5,381 bases of DNA from JACRDV01 sp024860865 [NCBI: Methanobacteriota archaeon] (lineage in GTDB: Archaea > JACRDV01): positions 1 to 5,381 of the forward strand of contig JACRDV010000121.1 in assembly GCA_024860865.1 (NCBI GenBank), in the 5' to 3' direction. The notes below the pieces were generated by a model that was given only the letters and a program-made list of their open reading frames with translations, had not been told where the DNA came from and ran no database searches. The position numbers and the translations under genes were made by a program. Below, one piece after another: positions 2,503 through 5,381 of this stretch (within the stretch, counting starts at the first letter, position 1; every line of letters starts with the position of its first letter).

Positions 2503-2544
2503 TTCTAATAACTAAATAAAAAGATTGTGCTAGTTGGGTTAATA

Positions 2545-5214
2545 ATGAGAGTTTCTGAGCTGGTAAAATATGGAGCTTCTGAGCAATTAATTAAAGCCTT
2601 GGAGAATCAAGGAATTCAGGAGCTTTATCAACCCCAAGCTTTAGCGGTTAAAGCCGGCCTTCTTTTCGCTAATGACTCATTTGTTATAGCAGCCCCAACG
2701 GCCTCTGGGAAAACACTTGTGTCTGAAATGCGCATTTTGAAGACAGTTCTCGAAGAGAGAGGCAAGGCATTATATTTAGTTCCTTTAAGAGCACTTGCCA
2801 GCGAAAAATTTGAAGATTTTTCCGAAAAATACGCACCGCTTGGAATAAAAGTTGCAATGACTACTGGCGAGCTTGATAGCGCAGATCCTTGGTTAGGTCG
2901 GTACGATATTGTTTTTGTTACAAATGAAAAAATGGACAGTTTAATCAGACATCAAGCTCCTTGGATCAACGAAGTTTCGTTAGTTGTTGCTGATGAGATA
3001 CATTTATTAGTAGACCCTCATAGAGGCCCAACGCTTGAGGTTGTTTTAGCTCGGTTGCGCCAGCTGAATCCTAACCTTCGAATTTTGGCTCTAAGTGCTA
3101 CGATAAAAAATGCAAGAGAAATAGCAGACTGGCTTGAGGCAAAACTTATTGAAAGCACTTGGCGCCCCGTGGTTTTGCGCGAAGGGGTTTGTTACGGACA
3201 AAACATCTCATTTAATGATGGCACTCAGAAAGAGATCAAACTTCTAACTAGAAATGATGCAATTAATTTAGCTCTTAATACAATTGAAGAAGGCGGTCAA
3301 GCTTTAATTTTTGTTAATACTCGAAGGGCAACAGAAAACATAGCAGAGTTAGCTAGTGGGCCAGTTTCTAAGGTGCTTTCGCTACCTGAAAAAAGAGCAC
3401 TAGAAGGAGCTGCAGATGAAATTTTAAAAGCTTTGCCTGAACCAACTAGAATTTGCAAAAAATTGGCTGATGCGGTTAGAAGCGGGGTAGGTTTTCATCA
3501 TGCTGGCCTTCATTCAAAGCAGAAAAAAATTGTTGAAAATAATTTTAGAGCAAATAAGTTGAAGCTGGTGATAGCAACGCCTACCCTGGCTATGGGCCTT
3601 AACCTTCCTTCGCGGCGGGTAATTATCAGAGATTGGTTGCGATATGAACCAGCGTATGGAATGACTTCAATTCCAGTTTTAGAGATAAAACAGATGTGTT
3701 TGCCATATTCGGCAAGGCTTCTGATTGAGAATGGAGAATTAGTACCAATAGGAGAAATAGTTGAGGAAAAAATGAATAAAAAAGTGTTTTCATTCGATCA
3801 CTCCCAAGGGAAATTTACTTTTAAGAAAATTTCTGGCTATTTTTTGAGAGAAACATATGAGTTAATTGAAATACAAACTAATGAAGGACCTATATTACAA
3901 ATCACTTCGGAGCATCCAGTTTTAGTAAAAGAAGGAGGATGGATACCAGCAGGAGATTTGGGGGCAGATAGCAAGATCGGATACTTAAGAGAATTTTGCT
4001 ACTTTGCAGATATTGGTCCTGTTAGATGGTTAAACATTAAAAAACTTAAGAAGATTAATGGGAAATTTAAAGTTTACAATATCTCTGTAGAGGATACGGA
4101 AAATTACGTAGCAGATAATTTTATCCTTCATAACTGCGGCCGAGCTGGAAGGCCAAAGTTTGATCGCTATGGTGAAGCAGTTTTAATTGCTAAAAGTCAA
4201 AAAGACCAAGAATTTTTATTTGAGAATTACATCCAGGCAGAGCCAGAAAAGATCTGGTCAAAGCTTGCAAACGAGGCTGCTTTAAGGACTCATGTTCTAG
4301 CATCTATTGCAACTTTATTTACAAAAACAAAAAGCGAGCTTTGGGATTTTGTAGATAAAACATTTTTCGCAAAGCAGTATGATCCGGCTACAATCTCTAA
4401 CGCAATTGAGAATATCTTACAATTCTTAGAGGAAGAAGCTATGATTGAAAGAAGAAAAGGCAAATTAATAGCAACTGATTTTGGCCGAAGGGTTGCCCAG
4501 CTCTATATTGATCCAAGCACAGGCGTCGTTTTGCGAGATGCACTTCGAATTGCGGAGGAAAAAATTCCAACCCATTTCTCTTTTTTACATGCAATTTGTC
4601 ATACTCCAGATATGCAAGTCCTTTACTTAAGAAGAGGAGAGCACGAAAAATTTGAGCAAGTTGTGTTAGAATATAAAGATGAATTTCTTTTTCCAATTCC
4701 AGATTCTTGGAGACACCCAAGTGCCTATGAACTTTTTATTGCTGAAACAAAGACCGCTGAAATATTTCAAGATTGGATAAATGAATCTCGAGAAGATGAC
4801 TTAGTTGAAAAATATGGAATTGGACCCGGAGATATTCGGGCGTTAATTGGGCTTGGTGATTGGTTATTATACTCGCTGCAAGAGTTGGGGAAAATTTTCA
4901 AAACTCGAAAATCTCGTGGCCTAATAGCAACACTTCGAAAGCGCGTAATTTATGGAGTTCGGAATGAGTTGTTAGAATTGGTGGCTTTAGAAAATATTGG
5001 TCGAATTAGAGCAAGGAATCTCTATCGCGCTGGCTATAAAACTTTAGACCAGTTAAAGGAAGCAAAGATAGAAGAGCTTGCAAAAGTACCAACAATTGGG
5101 CCAGGAATTGCTTTAAGAATCAAAAAACAACTGGGAGAAGAAGTTAAGCCAGAAATAATTGAAGAGAAAAAACTGGCTGAGAGCCGCCAGACTTCGATTT
5201 TTAACTTCGAGTAG
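2545..5214 (+). CDS. hel308: Hel308/Hjm superfamily 2 DNA helicase precursor containing a mini-intein
   Basis: Hel308 is an ATP-dependent 3'-to-5' DNA helicase of the Ski2-like class that acts at stalled replication forks. The precursor has 889 residues from the ATG; without the 146-residue intein it has 743, near the roughly 700-720 of known homologues. Motifs, in ATG numbering: Q-motif region LYQPQ (27-31), Walker A APTASGKT (50-57), Ia LVPLRALASEK (78-88), DEIH box (150-153), SAT (184-186), IV ALIFVNTRR (253-261), HHAGL (318-322), V ATPTLAMGLNLP (344-355). Motif VI is split: QM at 383-384 and CGRAGR at 531-536. A winged-helix region (about 570-650), ratchet domain (about 650-800) and helix-hairpin-helix domain with the IRAR element (about 809-863) follow. 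The tail QTSIFNF (882-888) resembles a PCNA-interacting peptide. The ATG is chosen because MRVSEL resembles known Hel308 N-termini. An in-frame GTG at 2527 would add six residues and has no Shine-Dalgarno site; the ATG has only a weak GGGT upstream. Confidence 0.95.
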   Translation: MRVSELVKYGASEQLIKALENQGIQELYQPQALAVKAGLLFANDSFVIAAPTASGKTLVSEMRILKTVLEERGKALYLVPLRALASEKFEDFSEKYAPLGIKVAMTTGELDSADPWLGRYDIVFVTNEKMDSLIRHQAPWINEVSLVVADEIHLLVDPHRGPTLEVVLARLRQLNPNLRILALSATIKNAREIADWLEAKLIESTWRPVVLREGVCYGQNISFNDGTQKEIKLLTRNDAINLALNTIEEGGQALIFVNTRRATENIAELASGPVSKVLSLPEKRALEGAADEILKALPEPTRICKKLADAVRSGVGFHHAGLHSKQKKIVENNFRANKLKLVIATPTLAMGLNLPSRRVIIRDWLRYEPAYGMTSIPVLEIKQMCLPYSARLLIENGELVPIGEIVEEKMNKKVFSFDHSQGKFTFKKISGYFLRETYELIEIQTNEGPILQITSEHPVLVKEGGWIPAGDLGADSKIGYLREFCYFADIGPVRWLNIKKLKKINGKFKVYNISVEDTENYVADNFILHNCGRAGRPKFDRYGEAVLIAKSQKDQEFLFENYIQAEPEKIWSKLANEAALRTHVLASIATLFTKTKSELWDFVDKTFFAKQYDPATISNAIENILQFLEEEAMIERRKGKLIATDFGRRVAQLYIDPSTGVVLRDALRIAEEKIPTHFSFLHAICHTPDMQVLYLRRGEHEKFEQVVLEYKDEFLFPIPDSWRHPSAYELFIAETKTAEIFQDWINESREDDLVEKYGIGPGDIRALIGLGDWLLYSLQELGKIFKTRKSRGLIATLRKRVIYGVRNELLELVALENIGRIRARNLYRAGYKTLDQLKEAKIEELAKVPTIGPGIALRIKKQLGEEVKPEIIEEKKLAESRQTSIFNFE
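3697..4134 (+). other. Mini-intein (146 aa, no homing endonuclease) in Hel308 motif VI
   Basis: This in-frame insertion separates QM from CGRAGR in the helicase and carries the hallmarks of a self-splicing Hint domain. Intein residue 1 is Cys in the block A stretch CLPYSARLLIENGELVPIGE. Block B is TSEHPVLV (T70 and H73 of the TxxH motif). Block F is KVYNISVEDTENYVAD (125-140), and block G is FILHN with penultimate His145 and final Asn146. The first downstream host residue is Cys, so the standard two-Cys class 1 splicing pathway should work: N-S shift at Cys1, transfer to Cys+1, Asn cyclisation. Block F has Asn128 where Asp is common and Glu135 where His is common; both can vary among inteins. 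There is no LAGLIDADG motif and only about 50 residues between blocks B and F, so no endonuclease fits. The intein cannot spread by itself today. Boundaries are firm, since excision rebuilds motif VI exactly. Confidence 0.93.
5188..5208 (+). other. C-terminal PIP-box-like peptide of Hel308
   Basis: The last eight codons encode QTSIFNFE. The pattern Gln-x-x-Ile-x-x-Phe fits the PCNA-interacting peptide at the extreme C-terminus of several archaeal replication and repair proteins. It lacks the second aromatic residue that completes the strongest versions. It follows a charged tail (EEKKLAESR), consistent with a flexible tether. Pyrococcus Hjm has been reported to interact with PCNA; binding by this protein is inference. 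Confidence 0.55.
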
Positions 5215-5250
5215 ATCTGAGTAATTATGAAAAAGATGTTTCAACTTGCA

Positions 5251-5282
5251 AAAATTGCAGTTTTTACTGAGAAAATTGCAGT
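5251..5282 (+). repeat. 11-bp direct repeat, 21-bp period, downstream of Hel308
   Basis: AAAATTGCAGT occurs at 5251-5261 and 5272-5282. The 21-bp period is about two turns of the helix, which would place both copies on the same DNA face. The first copy also lies in an inverted repeat, TGCAA-AAA-TTGCA (5247-5259). A further TTGCA is at 5364-5368. These may be protein-binding sites for the next gene or part of the helicase mRNA 3' region; the sequence alone does not say which. Confidence 0.5.
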
Positions 5283-5293
5283 CAACTTTTTTT
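5281..5293 (+). terminator. Oligo-T terminator after Hel308
   Basis: A run of seven T (5287-5293) lies about 70 bases past the helicase stop. Archaeal RNA polymerase terminates at such T-runs without needing a hairpin. A shorter T5 run (5261-5265) upstream and a T6 run (5353-5358) downstream could contribute. No strong GC-rich stem precedes it. Confidence 0.45.
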
Positions 5294-5307
5294 AAACAAA
5301 TTGAACC

Positions 5308-5323
5308 GCGAAATAATTTTATA
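5308..5323 (+). promoter_or_regulatory. Possible BRE/TATA promoter for a gene beyond the right edge
   Basis: GCGAAATAATTTTATA combines a purine-rich BRE-like element (GCGAAA) with a TATA-like TTTTATA (5317-5323). Transcription would start near 5345-5350 and run out of the window. A small palindrome, ATTTTA-A-TAAAAT (5330-5342), lies between the box and the expected start. The region is very AT-rich, so chance matches are likely. Confidence 0.35.
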
Positions 5324-5381
5324 CAAATCATTTTAATAAAATTCAACTTCACTTTTTTGTTAGTTGCAAAAAAAAAATAAA

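What the first reader, a model, noticed from the sequence alone, without database searches (positions are those of the whole stretch)
3697..4134. Mini-intein splits the arginine-finger motif of a DNA repair helicase
The intein sits exactly between QM and CGRAGR of motif VI, the element whose arginines contact ATP in superfamily 2 helicases. The unspliced precursor should therefore be unable to couple ATP hydrolysis to unwinding. Both splice nucleophiles are cysteines, so splicing could respond to redox state, metals or temperature, turning helicase maturation into a stress-sensitive switch. The insertion and its splice residues are seen directly; the switch is inference. Inteins are known in archaeal helicases (one is annotated in a Methanocaldococcus jannaschii Hel308-type helicase, from memory), so the host choice may not be new, but this short endonuclease-free form deserves comparison.
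Basis: partly seen in the sequence, partly recalled or inferred. Interest (0 to 1): 0.75.

Follow-up and report, generated by a model that had tools for sequence, protein, structure and literature searches.

The report
Mini-intein in Hel308 helicase motif VI
An archaeal DNA-repair helicase gene carries a short self-splicing protein insert (an intein) in its ATP-sensing motif; it is a real but ordinary kind of element, the endonuclease-less form of an insert found at exactly the same spot in many other archaea, and the proposed stress switch is untested.

Summary
The window encodes a Hel308 helicase (2527-5214, +) with a 146-residue class 1 mini-intein (3697-4134) between QM and CGRAGR of motif VI. 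Domain models, catalytic residues, a confident HINT-fold model and intein-free homologues support this. The site is not new: one genome scan found the C-side junction HN|CGRAG in 27 of 80 kept named archaeal loci, under at least eight group names. Both junctions read in one frame in 22 of 27: 6 are mini-inteins, 16 are 452-476 aa (LAGLIDADG domain in 4 of 4 scanned). The window's intein groups with full-length Nitrososphaeria inteins (99/96, rough), while its helicase does not (p-AU 0.0005). So it was most likely acquired horizontally and later lost its endonuclease. All 24 same-site inteins compared have Asn where block F usually has Asp. An Lhr-type helicase has an intein at the matching position. 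An inactive precursor is likely. The redox/heat switch has no specific support: no cysteine lies near the N-side junction, as in a known redox-trapped intein. Verdict: real, new member of a known kind; interest moderate.

The parts
2527..5214 (+). Hel308-type SF2 DNA helicase precursor, 895 aa including the intein (GTG start as listed; an ATG at 2545 is an alternative start)
2527..3696 (+). N-extein: up to QM of motif VI
3691..3696 (+). First part of motif VI, Q389-M390
   Evidence: invariant there, but most of those rows were selected by a pattern holding QMC; M varies to F, L or C in unselected relatives
3697..4134 (+). Class 1 mini-intein, 146 aa (C1 to N146)
3697..3699 (+). Block A nucleophile Cys1
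3904..3915 (+). Block B TxxH motif (T70-S-E-H73)
   Evidence: T70 and H73 invariant in 22 of 22 same-site inteins
3988..4026 (+). Loop (residues 98-110) at the place of the lost homing endonuclease; mean pLDDT 63 for residues 101-110
4072..4080 (+). Block F V126-Y127-N128: Asn where the assisting residue is most commonly Asp
4129..4134 (+). Block G penultimate His145 and terminal Asn146
4135..4152 (+). C+1 nucleophile and second part of motif VI, C537-G-R539-A-G-R542 (the two arginines)
4135..5211 (+). C-extein: rest of RecA2, winged helix, Hel308 domain 4, HhH domain
   Evidence: HTH_61, Helicase_dom4_arc, HHH_5

Best explanation
A class 1 (Cys1/Cys+1) intein sits at a recurrent archaeal insertion site in helicase motif VI of Hel308. 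It was probably acquired by horizontal transfer from the lineage of full-length, LAGLIDADG-bearing inteins now seen in Nitrososphaeria, and later lost its endonuclease by an internal deletion of about 317 residues. After translation it should excise itself by the standard four-step reaction (N-S shift at Cys1, transfer to Cys+1, Asn146 cyclisation, S-N shift) and rejoin QM to CGRAGR. Until then the helicase should be inactive or nearly so. Sequence, site, same-site relatives and discordant ancestry are shown. Splicing, precursor inactivity and the direction of transfer are inferred. The default is constitutive splicing of a persisting mobile-element remnant, not a dedicated switch.
For: Intein models and catalytic residues. 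HINT fold, pLDDT 93.5; best Foldseek hits are solved inteins, e.g. Pho CDC21-1, Mtu RecA, Npu DnaB. Uninterrupted motif VI in 29 of 29 loci examined. C-side junction of a same-site intein in 27 of 80 named loci. Intein tree: window with L125, L127, L128, L130 at 99/96 (the program calls its bootstrap values rough). Helicase tree of 29 rows: window held together with L125, L128 and L130 hosts is 112 lnL units worse, p-AU 0.00046. The window keeps sequence resembling both edges of the endonuclease in L125: YLREFCYFADI beside YAREFEYIPDK, and GPVRWLNIKK beside EPVEWLKVKD. Only one full Hel308 was found in the genome, which is 92% complete.
Against: No splicing data. Block F carries Asn (N128) and Glu (E135) where the usual assisting residues are Asp and His (PMC4031507, PMC7765530, passages), so splicing could be slow or conditional. 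Whether the window's intein is nested in or sister to the four Nitrososphaeria inteins is not resolved: the tree holding the four together without the window scored 5.4 lnL units higher, p-AU 0.656. The helicase trees place the window only with moderate support (87/84; SH-aLRT 88, no starred set holds it). The AU test on the 72-row helicase tree did not finish.
Confidence: 0.88

Rival explanations
1. Conditional switch (a sub-reading of the same anatomy): the intein holds Hel308 inactive until a signal (fork or single-stranded DNA, heat, redox) triggers splicing, as in Pyrococcus horikoshii RadA.
For: Precedent: a mini-intein in the RadA P-loop whose splicing is released by ssDNA and heat, with the former endonuclease loop acting as a hinge (PMC5790916, abstract and introduction; PMC10663303, passages). 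Same general layout here: mini-intein, ATP-site insertion, DNA-repair host, residual loop. Unusual block F residues. Mini forms in several lineages.
Against: No expression or splicing data. No N-extein Cys near Cys1. C101 has no counterpart in the nearest relatives. Full-length versions at the same site fit plain homing.
Confidence: 0.12
2. Purely selfish relic (the default sub-reading): a homing element that lost its endonuclease, splices constitutively and persists only because precise deletion is rare.
For: Patchy distribution and discordant trees. LAGLIDADG_3 in 4 of 4 full-length relatives scanned and in 0 of 6 minis scanned. The same genome holds 16 intein N-terminal matches in 15 genes.
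Against: I found nothing that speaks against it; it also makes few predictions that these tools can test.
Confidence: 0.75
3. Not an intein, or a decayed one: a normal helicase domain, or an element that no longer splices (helicase gene effectively dead).
For: Asn and Glu in place of the usual block F Asp and His.
Against: The segment is absent from 29 of 29 loci examined. The nucleophiles, TxxH and His-Asn are present, and the Asn is shared by 24 of 24 same-site inteins, so it is a shared trait, not decay. The helicase reading frame is intact.
Confidence: 0.05

Closest known systems
Full-length inteins at the same Hel308 position in other archaea (e.g. L125, L127, L128, L130 Nitrososphaeria; L134 Bathyarchaeia; L141 Nanohaloarchaea; L142/L145 Heimdall-/Hodarchaeota)
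   Same: Same insertion point, Cys1, TxxH, Asn at block F, His-Asn, Cys+1; to the four Nitrososphaeria inteins the N-terminal 95 aa are 42.6-45.3% and the C-terminal 38 aa 60.5-71.1% identical
   Different: Those are longer (about 317 residues more in L125), with LAGLIDADG_3 in the 4 of 4 scanned (L125, L130, L134, L141)
Mini-inteins at the same site (L124 Aenigmatarchaeota; L126, L129, L131, L132, L133 Thermoproteota names)
   Same: Same site, 130-153 aa, no endonuclease domain found
   Different: None of the six lies in the supported five-row group that holds the window, so their losses look separate; L132 has a very long branch and its place is unsure
Inteins in the RecA2 domain of archaeal Lhr2 helicases (PMC8301817, passages read) and the Lhr-type protein L097
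   Same: L097 has its intein at the matching motif VI position, QR|C...HN|CGRSGH, with Asn at block F; host matches NF010338 above cut-off
   Different: Paralogous host; intein of 459 aa
Pyrococcus horikoshii RadA mini-intein
   Same: Best PDB sequence match; mini-intein in the ATP site of a DNA-repair protein
   Different: Recombinase P-loop, not SF2 motif VI; conditional splicing shown there, not here
Other Hel308 inteins: motif V (L101, L106), HHAGL (L102), motif VI three residues further on (L095)
   Same: Same host family
   Different: Different insertion points; outside the 27-row group that holds the same-site inteins

Membership tests
Class 1 intein | Cys/Ser/Thr at intein position 1 | tested here: met
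   Cys1
Class 1 intein | Block B TxxH | tested here: met
   T70, H73; invariant in 22 of 22
Class 1 intein | Penultimate His and terminal Asn | tested here: met
   H145, N146
Class 1 intein | Cys/Ser/Thr at +1 of the C-extein | tested here: met
   C+1, codon 4135-4137
Class 1 intein | HINT fold | tested here: met
   Model pLDDT 93.5; best-ranked solved structures are inteins
Class 1 intein | In-frame insertion absent from homologues | tested here: met
   29 of 29 loci examined uninterrupted
Class 1 intein | Block F Asp (common, not obligatory) | tested here: not met
   Asn128; Asn also in 24 of 24 same-site inteins, window included, and in 5 of 29 other inteins (two of the 24, L126 and L136, were mis-scored by my script and read from the printed tails)
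Class 1 intein | Self-splicing activity | not testable with these tools
   needs expression
Class 2 / class 3 intein | Class 2: no nucleophile at position 1 (recalled); class 3: Cys at block F position 4 (PMC4031507, passages) | tested here: not met
   Cys1 present; N128 at that position
Hel308 helicase | Whole-protein model above the curated cut-off (NCBIfam) | tested here: inconclusive
   NF002654 851 bits (cut-off 887) and NF040935 540 bits (cut-off 1200), each matched in two stretches around the intein; Pfam Helicase_dom4_arc above its cut-off
Hel308 helicase | Fold of Hel308/Hjm | tested here: met
   2zj5 Z 37.4, rmsd 2.5, 675 aligned; Foldseek's top nine rows are Hjm/Hel308
Conditionally splicing intein | Splicing rate changes with a physiological signal | not testable with these tools
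   none

The most novel reading that the evidence does not exclude
Inteins at motif VI of archaeal SF2 helicases (Hel308, and the matching position in an Lhr-type helicase) belong to one broad intein lineage marked by Asn in place of the usual block F Asp. In it splicing is tied to the state of the helicase ATP site or its DNA substrate, so that a repair helicase matures only when forks stall; mini forms such as this one would be versions kept for that purpose after mobility was lost.
Probability: 0.1. Interest if true: 0.72.

Novelty: new member of a known kind. Interest (0 to 1): 0.38.

Why it matters
It adds an endonuclease-free member to a widespread archaeal Hel308 motif VI intein site that my paper searches did not find described (most subscription papers and intein databases could not be searched). 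Full-length and mini forms occur side by side at one site, so loss of the endonuclease and possible retention for function can be compared in one protein. The shared block F Asn is a concrete, testable departure from the usual catalytic set.

Tried and rejected
Viral contigs: the Hel308 query gave no confirmed relative. Plasmids: no match to the intein. Phages: one distant match, 30.7% identity, in an unannotated record, not followed. Redox switch: looked for a Cys near the N-side junction and for a counterpart of C101 in the nearest relatives; found neither. Recent foreign origin by base composition: intein GC 33.1% lies below every 438-nt extein window (36.3-42.9%), but third-position GC (27.4%) lies inside their range (23.3-36.3%), so I read the difference as amino-acid make-up.

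My first reading, that the tree shows the window nested inside full-length inteins, was withdrawn after (p-AU 0.656). A strictly single same-site family is not shown: one same-site row, L147, sits with the terminase intein (99/95) and not with the other 23 (92/87). Parsimony on that tree gives 5 changes between mini and full, a rough figure as many forks are weak. The AU test on the 72-row helicase tree did not finish; a 29-row set that I chose, with a simpler model, did.

The intein query with short flanks matched 44 of 394 genomes at E 1e-6; I fetched 20 stretches from these and earlier genomes and looked at their junctions, so most of the 44 were not checked for site. A DNA pattern for HN|CGR[AS]G matched 7 of 394 genomes, the reversed-pattern control 3; five of the seven are Hel308 (window included), one is the Lhr-type L097, and one (G327) has no open frame over 200 aa reading HNCGR and is treated as chance. 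That pattern misses Ser codons AGY and any +1 residue other than Cys. Of the 117 confirmed loci only the best 80 were returned; 37 were not seen. In 5 of the 27 same-site loci (L135, L138, L139, L143, L146) both junctions are not readable in one frame, because the contig ends or the frame breaks; they were left out of the trees. L132's Pfam intein score (29.2) is below the cut-off (35.8). The 53 intein-free named loci were caught by a pattern holding QMC, so their native Cys at +1 is no evidence, and the same holds for Q, M and C in alignment A3; among the 29 loci, +1 is Cys in 5 of 29. The organism could not be named.

Full report
What is there. The window is a whole 5381-base contig (G000:C75) of a 1.54 Mb genome in 160 contigs, 92% complete. 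On the plus strand at 2527-5214 lies one 895-codon open frame. Its best family and structure matches are Hel308/Hjm helicases: Pfam DEAD, Helicase_C, Helicase_dom4_arc and HHH_5; NCBIfam PRK02362 and Hel308 models, matched in two stretches and below their cut-offs; and PDB chains 2zj2, 2p6r, 9b15 and 2va8 by sequence. The best PDB alignment ends at query residue 390 and resumes at 537. The segment between, 3697-4134, is 146 residues, starts with Cys, ends His-Asn and is followed by Cys. It matches Pfam Intein_splicing and the NCBIfam intein N- and C-terminal models above their cut-offs.

Is it more than chance. The 29 relative loci examined (L005-L033, the best-scoring) all read the motif without interruption, 29 of 29. 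AlphaFold2, with an alignment of 22 same-site inteins, gives pLDDT 93.5 and pTM 0.88, and Foldseek's best matches are solved inteins, among them Pho CDC21-1, Mtu RecA and Npu DnaB. The one weak stretch, residues 101-110 (mean pLDDT 63), is where relatives carry an endonuclease.

Same site elsewhere. One scan of genome contigs with an alignment of five same-site inteins used the patterns [VT][LM]E[YI][KE]QMC and HNCGRAGR; 165 stretches matched, 117 were confirmed and 80 returned. In 27 of the 80 the C-side junction is HN|CGRAG; the other 53 are intein-free there. The 27 record titles name Aenigmatarchaeota, Nitrososphaeria/Nitrososphaerales, Thermoprotei/Thermofilum/Thermoproteota/Crenarchaeota, Bathyarchaeota/Bathyarchaeia, Nanohaloarchaea, Heimdall-/Hodarchaeota, Diapherotrites and Micrarchaeota, plus one unclassified archaeon. 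Both junctions read in one frame in 22 of the 27: 6 are mini-inteins (130-153 aa) and 16 are 452-476 aa. Of ten scanned with Pfam, 4 of 4 long ones have LAGLIDADG_3 and 0 of 6 short ones do. A DNA pattern for the junction matched 7 of 394 genomes, five of them Hel308 (window included) and one an Lhr-type helicase; the reversed-pattern control matched 3, so this is a rough count for +1 Cys only.

Where it came from. In a tree of 53 splicing domains the window's intein falls with the full-length inteins of four Nitrososphaeria loci, 99/96; the program notes that its bootstrap had not settled. In a tree of 29 helicases without inteins, holding the window together with three of those four hosts (L125, L128, L130) costs 112 log-likelihood units, p-AU 0.00046; the window lies instead, with moderate support (87/84), among rows that include Thermoplasmatota and Methanocellales names. 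The 72-row helicase tree agrees in broad placement, but its AU test did not finish. Intein and helicase thus have different histories, which fits horizontal acquisition by homing; the direction is inferred. Residues at both edges of the endonuclease in L125 have look-alikes in the window (YLREFCYFADI with YAREFEYIPDK; GPVRWLNIKK with EPVEWLKVKD), so the short form reads as a full-length one with about 317 residues removed. Whether it is nested in or sister to the Nitrososphaeria group is open: the tree with the four held together scored 5.4 units higher, p-AU 0.656.

Family marks. At the block F position that is most commonly Asp (PMC4031507, passages), all 24 same-site inteins compared have Asn (two rows mis-scored by my script and read from the printed tails; invariant in the alignment of 22). 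Some of the 24 are near-copies, so they are not 24 independent cases. Among 29 other inteins compared, 22 have Asp, 5 Asn, 1 Gly and 1 Cys; the five with Asn are an Lhr-type helicase at the matching motif VI position, two MCM inteins, a terminase-like protein and this genome's LonB. The Lhr, terminase and LonB rows join the 24 same-site rows at 98/96 in the tree. Within that group the same-site rows are not cleanly one clade: 23 form a group (92/87), and L147 sits with the terminase row (99/95). The window also has Glu where block F usually has His. What this means for rate is unknown.

How it works. By established intein chemistry (class 1; PMC4031507 and PMC7765530, passages) the residues present suffice in principle for the four standard steps; this is inference, not a result. 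The two motif VI arginines are invariant in 30 aligned Hel308 proteins and in the 29 loci. In the precursor model the helicase fold is recovered (2zj5: Z 37.4, rmsd 2.5 A, 675 aligned), but residues 388-392 and 536-541 fall below pLDDT 50, so the model does not place motif VI. I take the precursor to be inactive or nearly so; an assay is needed. Only one full Hel308 was found in the genome, so its function there probably depends on splicing.

The switch. The precedent is real: ssDNA- and heat-released splicing in P. horikoshii RadA, with the former endonuclease loop as hinge (PMC5790916, abstract and introduction), and Cys-based redox control in P. abyssi MoaA and mycobacterial DnaB (PMC10663303 and PMC6195587, passages). 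Nothing in this sequence picks out such control: cysteines of the precursor are at 222, 310, 391, 491, 537 and 691, with none near the N-side junction, and Cys491 (intein C101) has no counterpart in the nearest relatives. I rate the switch at 0.12.

Known or new. Inteins in ATP sites and in archaeal repair proteins are well known (PMC5790916, introduction), and inteins in the RecA2 domain of Lhr2 helicases are in print (PMC8301817, passages). My searches listed no paper on a Hel308 motif VI intein. Of the five papers holding both 'intein' and 'Hel308' I read passages of three; the other two hold the word intein once each and were not opened. Databases and most subscription papers were out of reach, so this is weak evidence of absence. 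It is a new member of a known kind.

Noticed in passing
G000, contigs C14, C28, C34, C42, C50, C62, C69, C75, C76, C81, C100, C129, C134: The genome is intein-rich: 16 intein N-terminal matches in 15 genes, including MCM (two), V-ATPase A and B, TopoVI B, RpoA' and A'', ribosomal protein S12, GlmS (a second mini-intein, 158 aa), LonB and ribonucleotide reductase (some host models score below cut-off because the intein splits them). A paper gives up to 19 per genome (PMC8229266, passages).
   Followed up: partly
L135, L136: Hel308 with two inteins: the C-side junction of one in motif V (HN|SAGVNLP) lies 36 residues before the N-side junction of one in motif VI (KQF|C). In L135 the frame is broken before the C-side junction of the second; in L136 the contig starts inside the first.
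   Followed up: no
G000:C17:1175-1540 (L123) against window 5012-5375: A copy, 94.8% identical over 367 aligned columns, of the Hel308 3' end and downstream region on another contig, which also holds a 361-aa open frame that looks like a transposase by eye.
   Followed up: partly
L097 (G354): Lhr-type helicase with an intein at the matching motif VI position, QR|C...HN|CGRSGH.
   Followed up: partly
L095 (G126): A different mini-intein (139 aa) in Hel308 motif VI three residues further on, KQMFGR|C...HN|SGRP, outside the group that holds the same-site inteins.
   Followed up: partly
L122 (G000:C28): Intein in a PHP-like protein (TIGR00375, below cut-off) with an unusual end, WCGN|S, and Cys at the block F position.
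   Followed up: no
L096 (G266:C163): Mini-intein (145 aa) in a protein that reads like a phage terminase large subunit, DLN|C...HN|CMDEA; it sits inside the group of the Hel308 motif VI inteins in the tree, next to L147. Host name by eye; no NCBIfam match at E 1e-20.
   Followed up: partly
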